A stretch of DNA of 26,353 nucleotides from positions 1-26,353 of the IMG/VR virus record IMGVR_UViG_3300017750_000091; one strand, written 5' to 3'. Origin of the DNA: a virus. The notes under the pieces were generated by a model. It was not told the DNA's origin, ran no database searches, and saw nothing but the letters and a program-made list of their open reading frames with translations. This document shows, one piece after another, positions 3,350 to 14,626 of this stretch; the stretch's first letter is position 1, and every line of letters starts with the position of its first letter. The position numbers and the translations under genes were made by a program.

Positions 3350-4081
3350 ATGTCTGGAATAAGTTATAACGATTTAGTTACAAATATTAGAAACTACACA
3401 GAAGTAGATGACACTGTACTAACAACTGCTGTCCTAGAAAATATAATTTTAAATGCACAACAAAAAATTTTTTTAGATGTCCCTATGGACTCTGATAGAT
3501 TTGCATCACAAGGTACGTTTGTTGCAGATGATAATACTATCAATGTTCCTGCAGGAGCATTTTTTGTAAGAGGTATAGAAGTATTTGAGTCTACAGCTAA
3601 TACAAATGGAGTTGGTCAATGGTTAGAGAAAAAAGATCAAACATATATCTCAGAGTATATAGGAAAATTAACTGGATCAGAAGGAGATAGAACAGCACAA
3701 GACGTGACTGGTTTACCAAGATATTACTCAATGTTTGGTGGAGCAACTGGATTAGGTACAACCACATCTGGAGGTATTTATGTAGCTCCTACACCTGACG
3801 CCAATTACTTATTCAATATATATTATAACAAAATGCCGGCTACTTTAGAGTCCAGCAATCAGACTAATTATGTCAGTCAGTATTTCCCACAAGGGCTTTT
3901 ATATGCTTGTCTTGTAGAAGCATATGGATTTTTAAAAGGTCCAATGGATATGTTGACATTATATGAAAATAAATATAAACAAGAGGTACAGAAGTTTGCA
4001 GGAGTGCAACTCGGTAGACGAAGAAGAGATGATTATACTGACGGTACTGTTAGAATTAAAGTCCCTTCCCCGTCGCCTTAA
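3350..4081 (+). CDS. SU10-type tail adaptor protein
   Basis: This 243-residue protein has the hallmarks of the podovirus adaptor family described for phage SU10, which forms a ring between portal and nozzle. An N-terminal helical pair (YNDLVTNIRNYTEV, VLENIILNAQQKIFLDVP) is followed by FVADDNTINVPAGAFFVRGIEV, LEKKDQTYISEY, LPRYYSMFG, and YYNKMPATL with C-terminal helices (LLYACLVEAYGFLKG, LYENKYKQEVQKFA). The tail is basic (LGRRRRDDY), as would suit contact with DNA or an acidic ring. It starts two bases after the previous stop with AGAGG as ribosome site. It differs from the gp4-like gene at 1606, so the phage encodes two adaptor-type proteins. Confidence 0.7.
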   Translation: MSGISYNDLVTNIRNYTEVDDTVLTTAVLENIILNAQQKIFLDVPMDSDRFASQGTFVADDNTINVPAGAFFVRGIEVFESTANTNGVGQWLEKKDQTYISEYIGKLTGSEGDRTAQDVTGLPRYYSMFGGATGLGTTTSGGIYVAPTPDANYLFNIYYNKMPATLESSNQTNYVSQYFPQGLLYACLVEAYGFLKGPMDMLTLYENKYKQEVQKFAGVQLGRRRRDDYTDGTVRIKVPSPSP

Positions 4082-4095
4082 TAAGGAGATTAATT

Positions 4096-4545
4096 ATGGC
4101 AATAACATCAGCAATATGTTCAAGCTTTAAGCAAGAACTATTACAAGGTAAACACAGTTTAGATACTTCTGGAAACGGAGGTGATAGTTTCAAACTTGCA
4201 ATGTACACTAGTTCTGCATCTTTGGGAGCTGCTACAACTGCTTATTCAACATCACAAGAAATTTCAGGAAGTGGATACAGTGCTGGTGGAGCAGCGTTGA
4301 CTAACACTGGAGTAGGCTTAACTAGTACAACTGCATTTACAGATTTTTCTGATATCAGTTTTACAAGTGCTTCATTCACAGCTAACGGTTGTTTAATTTA
4401 CAACACAACTACGGCTGGCGGATCTGGTACTACAAATGCGGTTTGTGTAATAGCGTTTGGCGGAGATAAAACAGTTTCTTCAGGAACTTTTACTATTCAG
4501 TTTCCAACTAACGATTCTAGCTCAGCGATAATTAGATTAACATAA
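4096..4545 (+). CDS. Small tail/virion beta protein, Ser/Thr/Gly-rich
   Basis: The 149-residue product has the pattern SSFKQELLQGKH, FKLAMYTSSASLG, TTAYS, EISGSGYSAGG and then repeated short strands ending FGGDKTVSSGTFTIQFP. This is a widespread marine-phage family of virion proteins, usually encoded beside tail fibres. No transmembrane segment or catalytic motif is seen. AAGGAG precedes the ATG. The next gene follows after 13 bases, with its ribosome site inside a small inverted repeat. A tail-fibre or collar component is likely. The exact location in the virion cannot be told. Confidence 0.55.
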   Translation: MAITSAICSSFKQELLQGKHSLDTSGNGGDSFKLAMYTSSASLGAATTAYSTSQEISGSGYSAGGAALTNTGVGLTSTTAFTDFSDISFTSASFTANGCLIYNTTTAGGSGTTNAVCVIAFGGDKTVSSGTFTIQFPTNDSSSAIIRLT

Positions 4546-4558
4546 GGAGGAAGTCCTT
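4544..4558 (+). promoter_or_regulatory. Inverted repeat covering the ribosome binding site
   Basis: AAGGA (4544-4548) can pair with TCCTT (4554-4558) across GGAAG, hiding the AAGGAGG site directly in front of the ATG at 4559. The stem is only 5 bp, so any translational control is speculative. Confidence 0.3.
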
Positions 4559-5887
4559 ATGGCTGACCAAACTTATACGGTAACGGTCGCATCCGGTACA
4601 TTATATATTTCCGGAGGAACAGGAAATGTTTTTTATCTTGATGGCGTTCGTAACATGGATGTTAAGTGGGTCAAAGGCGGCACACTTCGTTTCGATCAAA
4701 GCGATGCTTCAAACAATATGCACCCTTTGCTGTTTACAAACAGCACAAGTGATCCTGGTAATAATATTATTACATCTGGGGTTACATATTATTTAGATGG
4801 GGCCAGCAATCAATCTGATTACACCAACTTATCTAATTTTAATTCTGCTACTGTTAGGTATATAGAAATTGCTCCTGCTACAGAAATAGATTTTCATTAT
4901 TATTGTTATATTCATGGCATCGGAATGGGTGGTGCAATGGATATCACACAGAACACGTATGGTGCAGGCAGTTGGAGCACTAACAATTGGGGTGCACAAA
5001 ATAGTACAACAGAAGTTTTAAGTGGTATAAGCATGTCATCTACACTAGGTGACTTAGCTGCTTATCCTGAAAACGGTTGGGGTCACAGTTTCTGGGGCTC
5101 TGAGCCTTGGGGAGAAAGTTATAGCCCTGTCGTTCCGTTAACAGGTTTGTCTATGTCAACTGCATTAGGTACACTTCCTTATGCACAATCTATTGAAGGT
5201 TGGGGTAGAGATGAATACGGTATTGGTGGTTGGGGTACAAACGAAACTGTTGTTGAACTAACTACTTCTTTAAGTATGGATATGTCTCAAGGTCCAGAAG
5301 CTTGGGGCGAGTCGGCATGGGGATCTGATGTATTGTGGGGTGGAGAATTAGTTATTATACCTGAAAGTATAATAGGGATAACTGGTTTAGAAGTAACCTC
5401 ATCTATTGGAACAACAACTCAAGACTTTGACATGAATTTTGATGTCACTGGAGTTTCAAGCGGTGTTGCATTAGGTACATTAGATATTAACGATGGTACT
5501 GATCACCAAGTAGGTTTAGGTAGTGTGACTATAGGATCTGCAATTGGTTCTGTTGTAAACGAACAAGCTTATGAATTAAGTAGTCAAAGCATGTCGTTTT
5601 CTACACCAGCTAATGTAAATGTTGATGACACTCAAATAATTCCAGTAAGTGGTGTTCAAATGGCATCGCAAGTAGGAAGCATAGATGTTGATAACCTCAG
5701 TGTAGGACTAACTGGTATAGCCGCATCATTTGCTGTTGGATCTACAACAGTTGCTGATATTACTGTGGGCTTGACAGGAATTGAATTTAATAGTAATTTA
5801 GGAGAAACAGGGTTTGGTGCTTTGGCGTACAAAGATATTGACATAACAGCGACGACATCGTATACAGACATAACGCATGCAGCGTAA
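4559..5887 (+). CDS. Tail fibre protein: cupredoxin-like N-domain, WG motifs and 22-residue repeats
   Basis: This 442-residue protein has three parts. Residues 1-130 look like a cupredoxin fold: TLYISGGTG, GGTLRFDQSD, then His55 in NNMHPLLFT and a C-terminal YYCYIHGIGMGG loop, giving His55, Cys116, His119 and Met123 in the order of a type 1 copper site. Residues about 135-262 contain repeated Trp-Gly motifs (GWGHSFWGSEPWGE; GWGRDEYGIGGWG; AWGESAWGS). Residues 275-416 contain seven units of about 22 residues built on TG(L/I/V)xxxxxxGT. Three related units also lie among the WG motifs. The arrangement fits a fibrous virion protein. Copper binding is inferred from residue order only. Confidence 0.6.
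   Translation: MADQTYTVTVASGTLYISGGTGNVFYLDGVRNMDVKWVKGGTLRFDQSDASNNMHPLLFTNSTSDPGNNIITSGVTYYLDGASNQSDYTNLSNFNSATVRYIEIAPATEIDFHYYCYIHGIGMGGAMDITQNTYGAGSWSTNNWGAQNSTTEVLSGISMSSTLGDLAAYPENGWGHSFWGSEPWGESYSPVVPLTGLSMSTALGTLPYAQSIEGWGRDEYGIGGWGTNETVVELTTSLSMDMSQGPEAWGESAWGSDVLWGGELVIIPESIIGITGLEVTSSIGTTTQDFDMNFDVTGVSSGVALGTLDINDGTDHQVGLGSVTIGSAIGSVVNEQAYELSSQSMSFSTPANVNVDDTQIIPVSGVQMASQVGSIDVDNLSVGLTGIAASFAVGSTTVADITVGLTGIEFNSNLGETGFGALAYKDIDITATTSYTDITHAA
5381..5806 (+). repeat. 22-residue tandem protein repeats in the tail fibre
   Basis: Units begin near residues 275, 297, 320, 341, 364, 385 and 406: TGLEVTSSIGT, TGVSSGVALGT, LGSVTIGSAIGS, SSQSMSFSTPA, SGVQMASQVGS, TGIAASFAVGS, TGIEFNSNLGE. 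Spacing is 21-23 residues. Related units at 156, 195 and 236 are spread about 40 apart by WG-rich insertions. Confidence 0.65.
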
Positions 5888-5901: not shown

Positions 5902-7119
5902 ATGGCATCAACATACACACCTCTCGGCGTAGAGCTAATGGCAACCGGTGAAAATGCCGGTACTTGGGGAACAAAAACAAATACAAATTTAAATATCATC
6001 GAGCAACTTGCCGGTGGAACTTCTGTAAAAACAGTTAATGGAACTGGTGCAACAACTTTAGCACCATCTGATGGCGCAACTGGAGCATCAATTGCTCACA
6101 GAGTTATTGAATTAACTGGATCTATTACAGGTAATATTACAGTTACTGTTCCATTAGATGCTCAACAATTATATGTTATTAAAAATGGAACTTCAGGAGC
6201 ATACACTGTAGAATTTACATATGTCTCTGGTTCAGGTAGTAGTGTTACTTGGCCTGCTACTGATAAAGGAACAAGATTAATTTATGCAAAAGCAGATGAT
6301 GGAACTAACCCTAACATTGTAGATGTTGGTTTTTCTCAAATCACTGGAACTGAAACTTTAACAAACAAAACTTTATCATCACCAAAAATCGATACTGGTT
6401 TATTTGATACAAACGGAAACGAGTCTATCAAATTTACTGCTACAGGTTCAGCAGTTAATGAATTTACTGTAACTAATGCTGCAACAGGTAATGATCCTTC
6501 ATTATCTGCAACAGGTGGTGACGCAAATATAGATGTAAATTTAATTGCAAAAGGAACTGGAGTAGTTCAATCAAACGGAAGCGCTGTAAAAGTAGCCGGT
6601 AAAGAAACTATCTGGATTCCTTCTTCTGCAATGTATCCAACAACTACAAATGGATGCGCAAATCTAGAACAAACAGAATTAACAGCTGGTCAACCAGAAC
6701 TTAAATCATTGGACTTCGATCCTTCTTCTGACGAGAATGCACAATTTGCTGTTGCATTTCCAAAGTCTTGGGATCCATCACAACTTCTAATGTATCAAGT
6801 TTTTTGGACAGCTAACTCAACAAACACAGGTAACTGTATTTGGAATTTAAAAGGTGTGGCAGCGGCAAATGACGACGCGATTGATGCAGCATTCGGTACT
6901 GGAATTGATATTACTGATGCTCACAGTGGAACAGCTAACGATCTAAATGTTACAGCTCAAAGTGCTTCAGTAACTGTTGCTGGTTCTCCAGCAGCTGATG
7001 AAGAAGTATTCTTTAACATCTCTAGAGACGCTAATGCTGGTGGCGATACATTCACAGGTGACGCTAAACTACTAGGGATCAAATTATTCTTTGCTACTAA
7101 TCTGCCTAACGACGCATAA
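5902..7119 (+). CDS. Tail fibre protein with TLTNKTL motif and distinct C-terminal domain
   Basis: The 405-residue protein starts with TYTPLGVELMATGENAGTWG, an N-terminal attachment motif common in marine phage and cyanophage tail fibres (GENxGTWG). Residues 152-163 contain TLTNKTLSSPKI, the classic phage tail-fibre repeat element. Before it lies a beta domain (IELTGSITGNITVTVP, YTVEFTYVSG). After it come a short Ser/Thr/Asn-rich stalk with FTATGSAVNEFTVT and LIAKGTGVVQ, then a C-terminal domain from about 234 (ETIWIPSSAMYPTT) to the end, probably exposed at the tip. SD AGGAG lies in front of the ATG. It is a candidate receptor-contact or fibre shaft protein. Confidence 0.75.
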   Translation: MASTYTPLGVELMATGENAGTWGTKTNTNLNIIEQLAGGTSVKTVNGTGATTLAPSDGATGASIAHRVIELTGSITGNITVTVPLDAQQLYVIKNGTSGAYTVEFTYVSGSGSSVTWPATDKGTRLIYAKADDGTNPNIVDVGFSQITGTETLTNKTLSSPKIDTGLFDTNGNESIKFTATGSAVNEFTVTNAATGNDPSLSATGGDANIDVNLIAKGTGVVQSNGSAVKVAGKETIWIPSSAMYPTTTNGCANLEQTELTAGQPELKSLDFDPSSDENAQFAVAFPKSWDPSQLLMYQVFWTANSTNTGNCIWNLKGVAAANDDAIDAAFGTGIDITDAHSGTANDLNVTAQSASVTVAGSPAADEEVFFNISRDANAGGDTFTGDAKLLGIKLFFATNLPNDA

Positions 7120-8605: not shown

Positions 8606-9139
8606 ATGAAAGAAGTAAAGCTAACAAAAACATCAATATTCCATCAAGATTTATCTTCATTATCTAAATTAGATAATAAGAAATTAAAAATTGATTGTAT
8701 TGTTTTTCACGAAACTTACGAAGGTGAGTTCGGTTATGATAAAGATATTGAAATTCCTAACGATCAACAAGTAGATTGGTTATCTGATCACATGAGACAT
8801 CATTTTGATTTTCATTATAATCGAGCTTTACAACAATGTTTACCCCATACTCTTTTAATAAATGACCCTAACGAAGGAACGGTATTAAGAAGCCACAACC
8901 TTTATCTACAAGACATATCTAAAACTCCAGAGATTATAGGTATTTATTTTGTAGAAGCAGATGAAAAAGATGAAATTATATTTCATTATGATGATCATAT
9001 CCAAAAAGATTTAATGTGGAGAATGCCTATTAAATCTAAAAAATTTGTTTTGTTTCACAGTAGTTTAAAATATTACCTGCCACCTAACCCTTCTAAAAAG
9101 AAAAGAATAGCTTTGCTATTTCATTATCAAGTAAGATGA
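8606..9139 (+). CDS. Degenerate 2OG-Fe(II) oxygenase-like protein, probably inactive
   Basis: The 177-residue first member of the cassette has a C-terminal half that follows the double-stranded beta-helix pattern of its neighbours: LRSHNLYLQDI (His97), IIGIYFVEADEKDEIIFHY, KFVLFHSSLKYYLPPN, KKRIALLFHY with Arg167. Where active members have HxD or HxH and a distal His, this one has HNL and Tyr-Tyr (156-157), so two of three iron ligands appear lost. It may be a scaffold, a regulator or a diverged enzyme using other residues. The N-terminus (to about 90) is unrecognised. There is no ribosome site before the ATG. The stop overlaps the next start (ATGA). Confidence 0.5.
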   Translation: MKEVKLTKTSIFHQDLSSLSKLDNKKLKIDCIVFHETYEGEFGYDKDIEIPNDQQVDWLSDHMRHHFDFHYNRALQQCLPHTLLINDPNEGTVLRSHNLYLQDISKTPEIIGIYFVEADEKDEIIFHYDDHIQKDLMWRMPIKSKKFVLFHSSLKYYLPPNPSKKKRIALLFHYQVR

Positions 9140-9750
9140 TTTTAGAAGATTATTACTGGTACTTTAAGTCTGCAATTCCTGAGAATGTCTGTGACCAAAT
9201 TATTGCTCATGCTAAAGATAAACCTGTGCATGATGCCTTGGTGGGAAACGAAGGACAGAAAGCAGAATTAGTTCACAGTGCTAAAAAAAGACAGTCTAAC
9301 ATTTCATGGTTAAATGATCCTTGGATTAAGTTTCAAGTAGATCCTTATGTACAAGCTGCTAACGAAGCTTCAGGTTGGAATTTTAAATACGATGCTACTG
9401 AACTAATTCAATTTACTAAGTATGGCCCTAAACAATATTATGATTGGCATTGTGATAGTTGGCCTGCTCCATACAATAAACCAAACGAACCATTGCTTAA
9501 TAAAAAAATTAGAAAGCTTTCTGTTAGTGTTTTGTTGTCTGATCCAAAAGATTTTAAAGGCGGTGAGTTTGAATTTGATTTTAGAAATCATGACCCCAAA
9601 GATAAAGAAAATAAACAAGTAGCAAAAGAACTTAACAAAAAAGGTTCTATGATAGTTTTCCCTTCTTTTATTTGGCATAGAGTTAAACCTGTAACGAAAG
9701 GAGTGCGATACTCATTGGTGCTTTGGTACCTTGGGCATCCTTGGAAATAA
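9136..9750 (+). CDS. 2OG-Fe(II) oxygenase, prolyl-4-hydroxylase-like
   Basis: The 204-residue protein carries a full catalytic set: His105 and Asp107 (YYDWHCDSW), the GGEFEF strand at 142-147, distal His181 (FPSFIWHRV) and Arg191 (GVRYSLVLWYLG) for 2-oxoglutarate. Spacing and strands match the P4H/PiuC-like oxygenases common in marine T4-like phages. The reaction would couple 2OG decarboxylation with hydroxylation or another oxidation. The substrate is unknown. It starts inside the previous stop (ATGA) and ends in TAATG with the next gene, so translation is coupled. This is the most canonical oxygenase of the cassette. Confidence 0.85.
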   Translation: MILEDYYWYFKSAIPENVCDQIIAHAKDKPVHDALVGNEGQKAELVHSAKKRQSNISWLNDPWIKFQVDPYVQAANEASGWNFKYDATELIQFTKYGPKQYYDWHCDSWPAPYNKPNEPLLNKKIRKLSVSVLLSDPKDFKGGEFEFDFRNHDPKDKENKQVAKELNKKGSMIVFPSFIWHRVKPVTKGVRYSLVLWYLGHPWK

Positions 9751-10430
9751 TGGAACAACCTTGGTATAAAACAATGGACGGAGGTCCTAGCAACCCAAAC
9801 TTTAAAGAAGAACTTTATTTTAGTTCACCTGTTTGGTTTGAACAGTGCTTAGATTATTTAGAACTTGTAGATAAAATAAGTGACAGACATATAAAAGCTG
9901 AAAAGAAAAGAAGAGCTAAAGAAGTAAAAGAAAATAAAGATCGTAATTTAACTTATCAATCAGGGGGACTAGAAAGAGTTGAAGAGTTAAAAGGTTTTGT
10001 AGAATATATAGGTCAACGTGCTTGGGATTTTTTAGATTACCAAGGGTATGATTTAAGCAAGCAGAGCTTAATCTTTACAGATCTTTGGGCTCAAGAGTTT
10101 GCTAAAAATGGTGGTGGTTATCAGGACACACATACTCATGGTAACTGTCATGTCACAGGTTTTTATTTTGTTAGTTCTTCTAATCAAACATCTAAAGCTA
10201 TTCTTCATGATCCTAGATCTGGAGCAATGATGACAAAGCTACCATTAAAAAAACCCGAAGATATAACAAATGGTAACTCAACTATTATATTTAATACTGT
10301 TCCAGGTACGTTAATGTTGTTTAATAGCTATTTGCCACATTCATTTTCACTTGATCTTGGAAAAGAAAAATTTAAATTTATACACTTTAATTTACGAGCT
10401 GTGCCTCAAGGAGTAATGGGACATGTTTAA
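9750..10430 (+). CDS. 2OG-Fe(II) oxygenase of the TIGR02466/2OG-FeII_Oxy_5 type
   Basis: The 226-residue protein starts at the ATG of TAATG. A TTG-started extension to 9723 is possible but would overlap its neighbour without need. Residues 41-75 are a charged helical stretch (HIKAEKKRRAKEVKENKD). The oxygenase core shows DTHTHGNCHVTGFYFV (His128-x-His130), AILHDPRS, GTLMLFNSYLPHSF with distal His197, and IHFNLRA. The 2OG-binding Arg seen in relatives is Lys in KFKFIHFN. The HxH pair and 'tGfYfv ... DPR' pattern fit the 2OG-FeII_Oxy_5 family rather than P4H. It overlaps the next gene by 8 bases. Substrate unknown. Confidence 0.75.
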   Translation: MEQPWYKTMDGGPSNPNFKEELYFSSPVWFEQCLDYLELVDKISDRHIKAEKKRRAKEVKENKDRNLTYQSGGLERVEELKGFVEYIGQRAWDFLDYQGYDLSKQSLIFTDLWAQEFAKNGGGYQDTHTHGNCHVTGFYFVSSSNQTSKAILHDPRSGAMMTKLPLKKPEDITNGNSTIIFNTVPGTLMLFNSYLPHSFSLDLGKEKFKFIHFNLRAVPQGVMGHV

Positions 10431-11103
10431 AAAGAAAAAATATCTAATAATTAAACAGGCTATTTCAAAAGACTTAGCTGAGTTTGTGTACACATATTTT
10501 ACTATGAAAAGAGAAGTGTGCAGAACTTTATTTAGAGATAAATTTATACCACCTTTTGAAAAGATACATGGTGCGTGGACAGATCCTCAAATGCCAGACA
10601 CATATTGTTTGTATGGGGACTGTGCTTTTGAATCAATACTTTTAAAAGTAAAACCATTATTAGAAAAACACATGAAAGTTAAACTAATACCAAACTATGC
10701 GTTTGGTCGTCTCTATAAAACAGGGGACATTCTTCCTAGACACAAAGACAGATTTAGTTGTCAGTTTTCTACAACGTTAAATTTAGGTGGAGACATGTGG
10801 CCTATATATTTAAATCCAAATGAAAAAGAAGGTCATTTAGTTTTTGATGAAGATGGTAATGGGGTGGATTATGTTATGAGCAAAAGTAAAGGAGTAGCTA
10901 TAAACCTTGGACCTGGAGATATGTTATTGTACAGAGGTGATTTACTAGAACACTGGAGAGAACCTTTTACAGGTAAAGAATGTGCACAAGTATTTTTTCA
11001 TTATACAGACCAGGCTGCAAAAGGAGCTCACGACAATATTTTTGATACTAGACCACATCTTGGTTTGCCACCATACTATAGGAAAGGCCATAGAATAATC
11101 TAA
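10423..11103 (+). CDS. 2OG-Fe(II) oxygenase-like protein (HxD type)
   Basis: The 226-residue protein has FGRLYKTGDILPRHKDRFS with His107 and Asp109, a strand TTLNLGGDMWPIYLN, a loop rich in Glu/Asp, then GPGDMLLYRGDLLEHWREPF with distal His177 and Arg179, and a last strand AQVFFHYTD. The metal triad is complete. The usual 2OG Arg near the last strand is Gln189, though Arg179 or Arg110 could serve. I recognise this layout from cyanophage and pelagiphage genomes. A good AAGGAG site (10408-10413) lies inside the preceding gene, so it may be translated independently. It joins the methyltransferase gene in a TAATG overlap. Confidence 0.75.
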   Translation: MFKKKKYLIIKQAISKDLAEFVYTYFTMKREVCRTLFRDKFIPPFEKIHGAWTDPQMPDTYCLYGDCAFESILLKVKPLLEKHMKVKLIPNYAFGRLYKTGDILPRHKDRFSCQFSTTLNLGGDMWPIYLNPNEKEGHLVFDEDGNGVDYVMSKSKGVAINLGPGDMLLYRGDLLEHWREPFTGKECAQVFFHYTDQAAKGAHDNIFDTRPHLGLPPYYRKGHRII

Positions 11104-11759
11104 TGATATATTATGAGGGTCCTTTAAAAGGATCAGCAAGCAAAGAAAGAGTTTTTGATATACTAAACAAAGAAGCTGTTATTGATTCTGCTAATTATAT
11201 AAAACCTTTTATAAAAGATTGTGTAATTATGGAAGAGAAGTGGTGGGGTATTACTTTAAACCACATAACAAAGAAAGGATTACACCTAGAGTTTGGAGTA
11301 CACAGAGGAGAAAGTATTAATTATTTTGCACAAAATAAACCAGATATTACATGGTATGGTTTCGATAGCTTTGAAGGTTTGCAAGAAGACTGGAAGGGTG
11401 GTATGTTAGCAAAAGGACACTTTACTTTAAATGGCAAAGAACCAAAAGTATTGCCTAATGTCTCTTTAATAAAAGGTTGGTTTAAAGATACACTTCCATT
11501 GTTCTTAAGTAAAAATAAAAACAAAATGAGTTTTATACATATTGATTGCGATACGTACGAGTCCACTAAAGATGTCTTTGATTGTATCGACAAGAGCCTC
11601 TTACAAAAAGGTACTATTATATTGTTTGATGAGTACATGGGTTATACCGGGTGGAGAGAGAACGAATTTAAAGCATGGCAAGAGTACGTTAATAAAAACA
11701 AAATTAAATATAAATATATTGCTTTTGGTGAAGAACAAGCATTAATAAAAATACTGTAA
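11103..11759 (+). CDS. SAM-dependent methyltransferase, TylF/MycF-like O-methyltransferase
   Basis: The 218-residue class I methyltransferase shows motif I at 62-69 (LEFGVHRG), an acidic post-I residue Asp88 in WYGFDSFEGL, then FIHIDCDTYEST (Asp148, Asp150) and IILFDEYMGYTGW (Asp176, Glu177). This acidic pattern is typical of metal-dependent sugar or macrolide O-methyltransferases such as TylF and MycF, and of related phage and glycan-cluster enzymes. Length is near normal for the family. It lies mid-cassette, with one-base overlaps on both sides. It could methylate a hydroxyl, possibly one made by a neighbouring oxygenase (inference). The acceptor is unknown. Confidence 0.8.
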   Translation: MIYYEGPLKGSASKERVFDILNKEAVIDSANYIKPFIKDCVIMEEKWWGITLNHITKKGLHLEFGVHRGESINYFAQNKPDITWYGFDSFEGLQEDWKGGMLAKGHFTLNGKEPKVLPNVSLIKGWFKDTLPLFLSKNKNKMSFIHIDCDTYESTKDVFDCIDKSLLQKGTIILFDEYMGYTGWRENEFKAWQEYVNKNKIKYKYIAFGEEQALIKIL

Positions 11760-12211
11760 TGAAAGAGGTAGAAGTGTTTAAGAATTATCTACCTAAAGAT
11801 GAGTGCGAAGAGTATGCTTCATTGATCAGGGACCTGGGACCAGGGAACTTTGATTGGTCAGAAAGAACGGTAGAAATTACTAATGACTCTATTGTAGAAA
11901 GAGTCTCTGATTTTTTTAAAGAAAAATTAAATTTAGATCTAACAATATCAATGGCTCAATTACAGAATTGGCATGTAGGTTCTGAAGGTGCTTTACATTT
12001 ACATAAAGGAAGAGGGACCGAAGAGAGCAAATATAATAGTTTAATATATTTAAACGATGACTTTGAGGGTGGTGAGTTTTACACAAAGAATCAAATAATA
12101 AAACCTCAACAAGGTATGTTGACTATTTTTGATGGTAGTGTAACATATCATGGAGTTAAAGAGGTTAAGAAGAAAGATAGGAAGACAATTATTTTATGGT
12201 GGAAAAAGTAA
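11759..12211 (+). CDS. Compact 2OG-Fe(II) oxygenase with HxH pair
   Basis: The 150-residue protein is close to the minimal size for the fold. It has QLQNWHVGSEGALHLHKG with His80 and His82, then SLIYLNDDFEGGEFYT, the I-K-P-Q-Q-G turn, LTIFDGSVTYHGVKEV with distal His131, and RKTIILWW with Arg141. The order and spacing are exactly those of P4H-type enzymes, except that the Asp of HxD is His82. Whether it still binds iron through HxH is open. It starts at the ATG of TAATG and runs 16 bases into the next gene. No clear ribosome site is seen, so reinitiation is likely. Confidence 0.75.
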   Translation: MKEVEVFKNYLPKDECEEYASLIRDLGPGNFDWSERTVEITNDSIVERVSDFFKEKLNLDLTISMAQLQNWHVGSEGALHLHKGRGTEESKYNSLIYLNDDFEGGEFYTKNQIIKPQQGMLTIFDGSVTYHGVKEVKKKDRKTIILWWKK

Positions 12212-13377
12212 AGCATAGTCTACAATCATTTTATATTGTAGATGAATTTAAAGAACACAAGAAATTAAAAACAGAATTATTTGAAGCTGTTAATAATGCA
12301 CGTTCTGATTTCTTAGAACAGAAAGACACATACTATACAGACAACATTGAAAGACTAGATTGGTTAGATGCAAAAAAATTTGATAGAGAATGGGTTAAAA
12401 TTATATACCCACATCTAAGTAAGTTTTTAAAAAAGAAATTAAAAGATGCTGGTTATGATGGATGTGTAATAAAAAATATTTGGTTTCAACAATACGGTAA
12501 TGAAGGAACACACGGTTGGCATGTGCACGGACACACATTTACAGGAGCTTATTATTTAGACTTACCTAAAGATGGACCACCTACTGAAATTATAGATCCG
12601 TTTGATCACGGTAGAATAACACCACTTAAAGTCAAAGAAGGTGATGTAAGTATCTTTCCAGCTTATGCTGTTCACAGATCACCTACTAATAACTCACAAA
12701 GTAAAAAAACTATTATATCATTTAACCTAGAAGTTAATAAACCAACTAAAAAATTATTGAATAAAATAAATTCTAGTTATGTAATACACGCTAATCATCC
12801 AGACTATTTGTACTCAATACAATTAGACTCAATAGATAATAAAGAGTTAGTTAAATTTAGTTTAGAAGTCGAGAAGATGTTGCGTAAAAATTTACCACAC
12901 AATAGTGACCCTGAGTGGTATGGTACTTTTACTACAGCTAATCATCACGCATATAATTTTTTAACTTTTCCTAGCTCAGCAGTGTTAAAACTTTACCATG
13001 AAATTTTAAAAAATGTTTCTCCGTTATTAGAAGACAGACCATACATGATAAAATCATGGGTTAATGTTTACCGAAAAGGAGAAAAGGTAGATTGGCATAA
13101 TCACTGGCCAGCAGACAAAAAAGTATGGCACGGTTTTTATTGTGTCCAAGTTGGTGATAGTCACACTGATTATAGAATTCCAAACGTGCCACATATAACA
13201 CGAGTAGTAAGTAAAGAAGGTTTGTTAGTTGTGGGTAAAAGCGAAGATGATCAACACAGAAGCTCACCTTGGAATGAAAGCAAAAGACCTAGAATAACTA
13301 TAGCTTTTGATATAGTACCTATTGATTCTATAGATAATAAATTAAATCCTAACCACTTTATACCATTTACATTATGA
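12196..13377 (+). CDS. Tandem two-domain 2OG-Fe(II) oxygenase-like protein
   Basis: The 393-residue protein carries two oxygenase-like cores. Domain 1 has GTHGWHVHGHTFTGAYYLDL (His109-x-His111), GDVSIFPAYAVHRSPT with distal His160, and KKTIISFNLEV, where Lys replaces the usual Arg. Domain 2 has VNVYRKGEKVDWHNHWP (His301-x-His303), WHGFYCVQVG, GLLVVGKSEDDQHRSS with distal His354, and RPRITIAFDI with Arg364/Arg366. Both have HxH instead of HxD. Domain 2 has the more complete 2OG-binding end. The first 16 bases overlap the preceding gene, and AGGAAG about 11 bases upstream may help initiation. It joins the next gene by ATGA. It could be a fusion or a duplicated enzyme. Confidence 0.7.
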   Translation: MVEKVKHSLQSFYIVDEFKEHKKLKTELFEAVNNARSDFLEQKDTYYTDNIERLDWLDAKKFDREWVKIIYPHLSKFLKKKLKDAGYDGCVIKNIWFQQYGNEGTHGWHVHGHTFTGAYYLDLPKDGPPTEIIDPFDHGRITPLKVKEGDVSIFPAYAVHRSPTNNSQSKKTIISFNLEVNKPTKKLLNKINSSYVIHANHPDYLYSIQLDSIDNKELVKFSLEVEKMLRKNLPHNSDPEWYGTFTTANHHAYNFLTFPSSAVLKLYHEILKNVSPLLEDRPYMIKSWVNVYRKGEKVDWHNHWPADKKVWHGFYCVQVGDSHTDYRIPNVPHITRVVSKEGLLVVGKSEDDQHRSSPWNESKRPRITIAFDIVPIDSIDNKLNPNHFIPFTL

Positions 13378-13883
13378 TAAAAGCATGTCCATTTGTACCC
13401 TATGATGATCCTTTAATAATAGATTATTTAAAAGCATACACAGATAAAAACTCTTGTTGTTCTCAATACCCTAAATGTACTCATCCAAAACTACAATCAG
13501 ACGCGTATGTTTTTAAAGACAATAATAAAACAGTTCAATACTTAAAAGAAAAGTATTTTAAATTTTTAGAAGATTTGTTTGGTCCACAAAAAGTAGAACT
13601 ATCTAAAGCGTGGGTGTTGCATGTAAGAGCGGGGGAGACAACTCCAGCTATTTGGCATAGACATTCTGAGGATCAGTATAAAAATAAAATTCAAGTCTCA
13701 GGTATTTGTTATCTTACACCTACCATTTTAGGAACTGAGTTTGACTCAACGTATTGCACGTTACAGATAAAACCCATGGCTTATACCTGGTATCTGTGGG
13801 ACTCTAACAATTTACATAGACCTATAGAAGGGGTGCAGAAAACAGATCGTTTAATATTAGCAACTCAAACTGTTTTAGGTTAA
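13374..13883 (+). CDS. 2OG-Fe(II) oxygenase-like protein, HxH type
   Basis: The 169-residue protein begins with a Cys-containing segment (MIKACPFVPYDDP; CCSQYPKCTH at 28-37) whose four cysteines could bind metal or be incidental. The oxygenase core follows: KAWVLHVRAGETTPAIWHRHS with His95 and His97, VSGICYLTPTILGTEF, the I-K-P turn, YLWDSNNLHRPIEGV with distal His148, and DRLILATQTVL with Arg159. It is coupled by ATGA to the two-domain protein upstream and by TAATG to the sulfotransferase downstream. The VSGICYL strand after the HxH resembles the 2OG-FeII_Oxy_5-type gene at 9750. Substrate unknown. Confidence 0.7.
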   Translation: MIKACPFVPYDDPLIIDYLKAYTDKNSCCSQYPKCTHPKLQSDAYVFKDNNKTVQYLKEKYFKFLEDLFGPQKVELSKAWVLHVRAGETTPAIWHRHSEDQYKNKIQVSGICYLTPTILGTEFDSTYCTLQIKPMAYTWYLWDSNNLHRPIEGVQKTDRLILATQTVLG

Positions 13884-14626
13884 TGAAAAAATTTTATTTT
13901 CTATGTAGTCTTCCTAGAGCCGGTAATACTTTGTTTGCTTCTTTAATGAATCAGAACAAAAATGTACTAGTCTCTCCATATAGTGTAGTACCTAATTTAA
14001 TTAAACCTATACTAGATATAAAAAACCATAGAAATTTTTTATCTTTTCCAGACCATAGTTTAGTAGACAATGTTCTAAATAACTTGTTAGATAATTGTTA
14101 TACAAGTTGGAATGCTAACCGCATCATAGATCGGGGACCATGGGGACACCCAGACTGTCTTCCATACTTAAAGAATATAGTACCAGACGCAAAATTTATT
14201 ATTCTTTACAGACCTATTTTAGAAGTTCTAGCTTCTGTTGTTGCATTAGATAAACCAGAAGATCCTGTATCTTATTGTGATCATTTAATGACCGGTAGTT
14301 TTGTATCCGATGGGTATCAATCTATTAGAAATTTAGTACAACAAAAAGAAAAATACATAGTTGTACAGTATAACGACCTAATTAAAGATCCTGTAAATAC
14401 AGTTAAAACTGTGTGTAATTTTCTTGATATAGATTATGAGACACTTAAGCTCAAATCTTTAGACCAGTATAGCGTTAATGGAATATCTTATGATGATACC
14501 TTTTTTAAAGGCCCTTATCATGATATAAGGACTGACAGTATTAAAAAAAATAAAAGGGATATTGACGAATGGTTGCCCTCAGAGGTAGTGAAACGCTACT
14601 CTGCCTGGGATTTATCTTTTGATTGA
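13883..14626 (+). CDS. PAPS-dependent sulfotransferase-like protein
   Basis: The 247-residue protein has the two cofactor motifs of sulfotransferases: SLPRAGNTLFASLM at 9-22 (5'-phosphosulfate loop) and FIILYRPILEVLASVV at 105-120 (3'-phosphate binding, Arg110 and Ser118). The later VVQYNDLIKDPVNTVKTVC then FLDI segment is the usual sulfotransferase 'YEDL ... dP ... FLgi' block. The enzyme would move sulfate from PAPS to a hydroxyl or amine of a glycan, lipid, tyrosine or small molecule. No signal peptide is seen, so it acts in the cytoplasm. It is the last gene of the cassette, starting at TAATG. A P-loop kinase is the less likely alternative. Confidence 0.75.
   Translation: MKKFYFLCSLPRAGNTLFASLMNQNKNVLVSPYSVVPNLIKPILDIKNHRNFLSFPDHSLVDNVLNNLLDNCYTSWNANRIIDRGPWGHPDCLPYLKNIVPDAKFIILYRPILEVLASVVALDKPEDPVSYCDHLMTGSFVSDGYQSIRNLVQQKEKYIVVQYNDLIKDPVNTVKTVCNFLDIDYETLKLKSLDQYSVNGISYDDTFFKGPYHDIRTDSIKKNKRDIDEWLPSEVVKRYSAWDLSFD

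What the first reader, a model, noticed from the sequence alone, without database searches (positions are those of the whole stretch)
4559..4948. Cupredoxin-like domain with a possible type 1 copper site on a tail fibre
Residues His55, Cys116, His119 and Met123 follow the order of blue-copper ligands. The C-x2-H-x3-M loop (CYIHGIGM) closely resembles plastocyanin-type C-x2-H-x4-M. A metal-binding fold on a virion fibre could be purely structural or could sense or scavenge copper. I do not know of experimental data on it.
Basis: partly seen in the sequence, partly recalled or inferred. Interest (0 to 1): 0.6.

Follow-up and report, generated by a model that had tools for sequence, protein, structure and literature searches.

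The report
Copper-site domain on marine phage tails
A tail-region protein of this marine phage begins with a domain related to the blue-copper electron carriers of photosynthesis, with its copper-holding residues kept, and the same kind of domain sits in tail and baseplate proteins of hundreds of ocean phages, which suggests, but does not yet prove, that many marine phages carry copper on their tails.

Summary
The 442-aa ORF at 4559-5887 has His55, Cys116, His119 and Met123 as described (C-x2-H-x3-M). Residues 1-131 model with high confidence, and all 50 best PDB entries are cupredoxins or multicopper proteins built from them. Profile comparison links the phage family to cellular cupredoxins, two of which were tested and pass Pfam Copper-bind (98.5-99.1%); all four ligands align. 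H/C/H is kept in 255 of 273 relatives. When the Cys is lost, the C-terminal His goes with it, and often His55 too. Cys116 is the protein's only Cys, so no intrachain disulphide is possible.

The domain is far wider than the window. Relatives occur in marine cyanophages (332-348 records), pelagiphages and methylophages, many annotated as baseplate wedge, gp9 fibre connector or tail fibre. No paper found here describes it.

"On a tail fibre" is not shown for this protein: it lies in a conserved tail module, and its other 310 residues have no confident model. Copper binding and its role are inferred. Best reading: a genuine type-1-like copper-site domain, loaded after assembly, serving as a metal-stabilised module of the adsorption apparatus. 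New variant of a known kind; interest 0.64.

The parts
4559..4951 (+). Cupredoxin domain, residues 1-131 of the 442-aa protein
   Evidence: AlphaFold2 pLDDT 92.3 for residues 1-137; all top PDB matches are cupredoxins or multicopper proteins; hhalign 98.5% to cellular cupredoxins
4721..4723 (+). His55 codon, N-terminal ligand of the predicted copper site (in MHPLLF)
   Evidence: Direct reading; conserved in 69 of 77 relatives below 70% identity
4904..4906 (+). Cys116 codon, predicted thiolate ligand and only Cys of the protein
   Evidence: Direct reading; conserved in 63 of 72; single Cys
4913..4915 (+). His119 codon, predicted C-terminal His ligand
   Evidence: Direct reading; conserved in 64 of 71
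4925..4927 (+). Met123 codon, predicted axial ligand
   Evidence: Direct reading; Met in 61 of 68, Gln in 4
4952..5887 (+). Rest of the ORF: Trp/Gly-rich and beta-type repeats, variable among homologues, no confident model
4545..4550 (+). AGGAGG, probable ribosome binding site
   Evidence: Read directly in the sequence
4096..4545 (+). Conserved upstream neighbour, phrog_644 (unknown function)
   Evidence: PHROG E 1.7e-24; next upstream of the domain gene in 136 of 140 homologous contigs
5902..7119 (+). Conserved downstream neighbour, phrog_31104 (unknown function)
   Evidence: PHROG E 6.2e-45; next downstream in 119 of 140 contigs
3350..4081 (+). SU10-type adaptor protein, marks the tail module
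   Evidence: Pfam PF24175 E 7.9e-18

Best explanation
Residues 1-131 are a genuine cupredoxin domain, related to the plastocyanin/azurin-type (Pfam Copper-bind) family, with an intact His/Cys/His/Met type 1 copper site. It is an exchangeable module of the adsorption apparatus (baseplate wedge, fibre connector, fibre-like proteins) of marine tailed phages. Most likely mechanism: the protein folds without copper in the host cytoplasm, where free copper is scarce, and takes up one copper ion at lysis or in seawater; the filled site locks the beta-sandwich and its ligand loop, giving a stable anchoring or contact domain next to the variable C-terminal part. Shown here: the ligand residues, the predicted fold, the homology, and the conservation and joint loss of the ligands. 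Inferred: virion location of this particular protein (about 0.85), copper as the metal in vivo (about 0.6), post-assembly loading, and a structural or contact-module role (about 0.5).
For: Ligands at the stated positions. Confident model with cupredoxin fold: pLDDT 92.3; all 50 best Foldseek and all 50 best VIA-align rows are cupredoxins or multicopper proteins. hhalign to cellular cupredoxins 98.5%, E 4e-15, and 99.1%, E 7e-19, with all four ligand columns in register; two of those cellular proteins, L321 and L323, were scanned and pass the PF00127 cut-off. H-C-H kept in 255 of 273 relatives and 81 of 93 from searches whose seeds held no ligand. Ligands are lost jointly: Cys with His119 p 6e-9, Cys with His55 p 4e-6, not corrected for ancestry. 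In 256 of 273 domains there is exactly one Cys. Relatives in baseplate, gp9 connector and fibre-like proteins of marine phages; conserved tail-module neighbourhood.
Against: No metal has been measured. The window domain itself is below Pfam detection. Some copies in related phages lack the site, so the fold does not need metal. The examined 80 kb of S-CREM2, a marine T4-like phage with a published virion proteome, has no such domain. No virion proteomics names this protein.
Confidence: 0.6

Rival explanations
1. Metal-free structural module: the domain is only an Ig-like beta-sandwich, and the conserved His, Cys, His and Met persist as packing or interface residues of a former copper protein.
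For: Copies without ligands exist in virion proteins of PSS2, S-RIM4, P-HM2 and locus L161. Virions assemble in the cytoplasm, where copper is scarce (general knowledge).
Against: A relic site should drift one residue at a time; instead the residues are kept together or lost together, although far apart in sequence. The loss of the site is a minority state even among highly diverged copies.
Confidence: 0.2
2. Host contact through the metal: the copper-loaded domain docks to a copper-handling or cupredoxin-binding protein at the host surface, a copper counterpart of the Ferrojan (Trojan) horse idea for iron.
For: Position in fibre connectors, baseplate and fibre-like proteins. Restricted to marine phages as far as record names show. 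Iron sites on tail fibres have been proposed to act this way (PMC11705849).
Against: In the window protein the domain is the conserved N-terminal part and the C-terminal part varies, the reverse of what a receptor-binding tip usually shows. Hosts are diverse (Synechococcus, Prochlorococcus, Pelagibacter, Methylophilales).
Confidence: 0.13
3. Redox or electron-transfer function: the site cycles between Cu(I) and Cu(II) and switches or senses something during infection.
For: The ligand set is the complete type 1 set, which in known proteins serves electron transfer (general knowledge). In T4-like relatives it lies in baseplate parts that rearrange (rearrangement from general knowledge).
Against: No redox partner or second metal centre was recognised in the window genes examined. 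The domain also occurs in podoviruses (Autographiviridae), which lack a contractile tail.
Confidence: 0.05
4. Another metal such as zinc occupies the His/Cys/His site and acts structurally.
For: Cys and His also bind zinc (general knowledge); nothing here distinguishes metals directly.
Against: The axial Met (Gln in a few copies) and the cupredoxin fold match copper proteins; Met is in 61 of 68 diverged copies.
Confidence: 0.07

Closest known systems
Plastocyanin/azurin family, Pfam PF00127 Copper-bind, in particular the marine cellular cupredoxins L321, L323, L356 and L361
   Same: Cupredoxin-type sequence and all four ligands in register; C-x2-H-x2-M or longer loop; PF00127 passed by L321 and L323.
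   Different: Cellular ones are secreted or lipoprotein-like; the phage domain has no evident signal peptide, is fused into tail or baseplate proteins and, for the window, is below the Pfam cut-off.
Amicyanin and other C-x2-H-x2-M blue copper proteins (general knowledge)
   Same: The loop spacing of many relatives of the window domain is C-x2-H-x2-M (124 of 220 copies counted).
   Different: The window's own loop has one more residue, C-x2-H-x3-M (96 of 220). No sequence-level match to amicyanin was found with the window domain.
Rusticyanin (1rcy) and the Nitrosopumilus purple cupredoxin (5fc9)
   Same: Best single-domain structural matches: rusticyanin Z 7.4-7.9, rmsd 3.1, 103-104 residues; 5fc9 Z 7.5, rmsd 2.6, 90 residues, 20% identity.
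   Different: Free-standing electron-transfer proteins; not virion proteins. Z values this size show a shared fold only.
Cyanophage-encoded plastocyanin (petE)
   Same: Also a cupredoxin encoded by marine cyanophages; petE is listed among cyanophage genes (PMC3037559).
   Different: petE is a photosynthesis-related metabolic gene, not a domain of a virion protein; in a small tree host-type plastocyanins fall outside the phage virion domains.
Iron-binding HxH tail fibres (phage T4 gp37, Alteromonas phage R22Y) and the Ferrojan horse idea
   Same: Metal sites proposed on tail proteins of a marine phage (PMC11705849).
   Different: Other metal, ligands and fold; no homology is claimed.

Membership tests
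Cupredoxin superfamily | Greek-key beta-sandwich fold | tested here: met
   AlphaFold2 model pLDDT 92.3; top PDB matches by two programs are all cupredoxins or multicopper proteins
Cupredoxin superfamily | Sequence homology to accepted members | tested here: met
   hhalign 98.5% (E 4e-15) and 99.1% (E 7e-19) to a six-sequence cellular set, two members of which were scanned and pass PF00127
Type 1 (blue) copper proteins | His, Cys, His and axial Met in order, in the loop positions of the fold | tested here: met
   Residues present and aligned column by column to cellular cupredoxins; conserved
Type 1 (blue) copper proteins | Ligands converge on one metal-binding point | not testable with these tools
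   Model coordinates are not exposed; inferred from homology only
Type 1 (blue) copper proteins | Binds copper, with characteristic absorbance and EPR | not testable with these tools
   Needs purified protein or virions
Pfam PF00127 Copper-bind | Score above the gathering cut-off | tested here: not met
   No PF00127 hit for the window domain. The best phage relative, ACG-2014j, scores 20.2 against a cut-off of 21.2
Phage tail or baseplate protein | Gene in a virion (tail) module | tested here: met
   Next to an SU10-type adaptor; neighbours conserved in 136 and 119 of 140 contigs
Phage tail fibre protein | Fibre architecture of the rest of the protein, and presence in the virion | tested here: inconclusive
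   PHROG tail-fibre hit covers only the domain; residues 131-442 have no confident model; no proteomics for this phage

The most novel reading that the evidence does not exclude
A large share of marine tailed phages carry copper-loaded cupredoxin domains on baseplates, fibre connectors and fibres, and the copper works in adsorption: it lets the tail recognise copper-handling proteins at the host surface or gates a step of infection, a copper counterpart of the Ferrojan horse idea.
Probability: 0.13. Interest if true: 0.88.

Novelty: new variant of a known kind. Interest (0 to 1): 0.64.

Why it matters
If copper is bound, abundant marine phages carry a metalloprotein domain on their adsorption apparatus that records list as hypothetical, baseplate or fibre protein. 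That would tie phage stability or infection to trace-metal chemistry in the ocean and make virions a possible copper ligand pool, beside the better discussed iron. It is directly testable in cultured cyanophages that carry the domain (S-SM1, Syn9, P-SSM2). It also gives a handle on many virion proteins that Pfam does not recognise.

Tried and rejected
Direct PDB sequence searches with the window domain and with two profiles found nothing significant. Pfam and NCBIfam gave no accepted hit for the window family (plastocyanin TIGR02656 only at 0.085 for one relative). An intrachain disulphide role for Cys116 was rejected because it is the protein's only Cys. Chance resemblance was rejected on homology and conservation. 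Full-length structure prediction was uninformative beyond the domain. Capture of a host plastocyanin gene was not supported: in a small tree plastocyanins fall outside, and the phage domains group with another type of cellular cupredoxin (about 100 aa, deep nodes weak). Proteome proof was sought in S-CREM2, but its 42-122 kb stretch has no such domain, with working positive controls. S-SM1 virion proteomics exists (PMC3037559), but the table naming the proteins is a supplement I could not read. No match in plasmids. Paper searches for cupredoxin or plastocyanin-like with cyanophage, tail fibre, virion or capsid gave nothing relevant; the library holds open-licence papers only. Caution: columns F45, Q47 and N52 rank as conserved partly because they were search seeds; seeds included two ligand motifs, hence the separate count.

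Full report
Observation. The ORF at 4559-5887 encodes 442 aa. His55, Cys116, His119 and Met123 are present as stated, with the loop CYIHGIGM. Cys116 is the only cysteine of the protein. Shuffling the domain gives a comparable H...C-x2-H-x2-4-M arrangement in about 0.07% of cases, so the motif alone is suggestive; the comparative evidence below decides.

Setting. The window is a whole 26,353-base virus record. Upstream lie an SU10-type adaptor (PF24175) and a phrog_644 gene; downstream a phrog_31104 protein. Among the window genes searched for, these two are the nearest neighbours of the domain gene in 136 and 119 of 140 homologous contigs. The protein therefore belongs to a conserved tail module. 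Its N-terminal domain is conserved while the Trp/Gly-rich C-terminal repeats diverge. PHROG hits to tail proteins (phrog_708 baseplate wedge, phrog_30742 tail fibre) run through the domain only, so 'tail fibre' is a plausible but unproven label.

Fold. AlphaFold2 with 79 rows gives residues 1-137 at mean pLDDT 92.3. Foldseek against the PDB lists only cupredoxins and multicopper proteins among the 50 best rows (best E 7e-5; rusticyanin 3.7e-4). VIA-align gives Z 8.2 to 7.2 for its 50 rows, again all of that kind, with compact matches to rusticyanin and to the Nitrosopumilus purple cupredoxin. Z values of this size show a shared fold, not a function. BFVD matches include virion structural and tail-fibre-like proteins of cyanophages. 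The full-length model is poor outside the domain.

Homology. The domain itself has no Pfam hit and no significant PDB sequence hit. Searching genomes for Copper-bind proteins brought out marine cellular cupredoxins of a particular type: L321, a 148-aa ORF with a signal-like N-terminus from a Prochlorococcus genome; L323 and L361 from a Bacteroidetes genome; and L356, a lipoprotein-like protein with repeats from a genome of the same phylum. L321 and L323 pass the PF00127 cut-off. Profile comparison of phage and cellular sets gives 98.5% (E 4e-15) for the window family and 99.1% (E 7e-19) for its wider relatives, with the His, Cys, His and Met columns in register. The cellular set aligns to plastocyanin-type sequences at 97.2%. 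The direct comparisons of phage profiles with the plastocyanin-type set are weaker, 83.5% and 90.6%. A tree of about 100 residues places the phage groups with these cellular proteins and apart from plastocyanins, with weak deep nodes.

Ligand conservation. In 273 relatives the pattern is HCHM in 248, HCHQ in 5 and HCH with a gap in 2. In 93 diverged domains from loci other than those of the first search (whose seeds included ligand motifs), 81 keep H-C-H. Among 77 domains below 70% identity the ligands rank within the top eight columns. Of the 71 with all three positions filled, 63 keep all three, 4 lose all three, 3 keep only His55, and 1 keeps only the second His, which looks like an alignment ambiguity. 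Cys and the C-terminal His are lost together (Fisher 6e-9), as are Cys and His55 (4e-6), without correction for ancestry. Copies without a site occur in PSS2, S-RIM4, P-HM2 and locus L161/L311, so the fold can persist as a plain module. The loop is C-x2-H-x2-M in 124 copies and C-x2-H-x3-M in 96.

Breadth. tblastn with the window domain finds 90 phage records. A wider-type member finds 176, including Pelagibacter and Methylophilales phages. The cellular L356 domain finds 348, with 55% identity to a P-SSM2 tail-fibre-like protein. The C-terminal domain of S-SM1 gp9 finds 332. Nearly all are marine cyanophages by name; none of the listed names is a phage of a non-aquatic host. The domain ends the gp9 fibre connector of S-SM1, Syn9, S-RIM2 and P-TIM68, and a second form lies in the large baseplate wedge protein of S-SM1 and Syn9. 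It begins fibre-like proteins of the podoviruses P-SCSP2 and P-GSP1. In 69 environmental gp9-type copies that could be parsed, the Cys, His and Met of the loop are all kept (one of the six seed peptides of that search, held Cys and His). Phages selected for carrying the domain have up to five matches. It is not universal: the examined 80 kb of S-CREM2 has none.

Interpretation. The fold, the family and the ligand set are, in my judgement, secure (0.9 or more). Copper as the metal in vivo is likely but unmeasured (about 0.6). The most economical role is a metal-stabilised module of the adsorption apparatus, filled after lysis because virions form in the cytoplasm (general knowledge; inference). 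A role in host contact (0.13) or redox switching (0.05) is possible. A metal-free packing role is the main sceptical alternative (0.2); the joint loss of residues far apart in sequence speaks against it.

Known versus new. The domain type is known (cupredoxin). Cyanophages that encode plastocyanin, petE, as a metabolic gene are known (PMC3037559). Iron sites on tail fibres have been proposed (PMC11705849). I found no paper describing cupredoxin domains in phage tail or baseplate proteins, with the limit that only open-licence papers are searched. I file it as a new variant of a known kind.

Noticed in passing
9136-14626: Cassette of at least four 2OG-Fe(II) oxygenase-like genes (9136, 9723, 11759, 12196), a TylF-type methyltransferase (11103) and a sulfotransferase (13883) inserted between tail-module genes. 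Possibly surface or fibre modification; unusual in number.
   Followed up: no
L018, L023, L024, L048, L069, L127: The cupredoxin domain is duplicated in tandem in homologues of the window protein, with the ligands kept in both copies of most.
   Followed up: partly
L161:2542-3915 (same region as L311): Three successive domain copies with the Cys replaced (Ser or Gly); two have His directly after the Gly, as in YYFGHNGLNQGN, and keep the first His: lost or altered metal sites.
   Followed up: partly
L386:1237-1611, L387:1361-1735, L384:1438-1809, L382:1462-1839: The gp9 baseplate wedge-tail fibre connector (phrog_677) of marine T4-like cyanophages ends in a cupredoxin domain with all four ligands; over 300 phage records match.
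   Followed up: yes
L386:1237-1611 and L379:2429-2806: These phage domains also match Pfam PF25489, an At5g54830-like plant domain, below cut-off (E 1.9e-4 and 4.5e-4); that plant domain may be related to cupredoxins.
   Followed up: no
L356:1486-1809: Cellular protein from the phylum of the L178 Bacteroidetes genome, lipoprotein-like, with three SHPxHIH-containing repeats followed by a cupredoxin domain that is close to a P-SSM2 tail-fibre-like protein (57% in alignment, 55% in tblastn).
   Followed up: partly
L172-L204: Marine bacterial and archaeal assemblies (SAR116, Actinomarina, Marine Group II, Prochlorococcus single cells) contain the phage-type domain; many may be viral contigs or infected cells.
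   Followed up: no
5090-5360: The region after the domain is rich in GWGxxxWG-like repeats alternating with LTGLSMSTALG-like repeats, variable in number among homologues.
   Followed up: no
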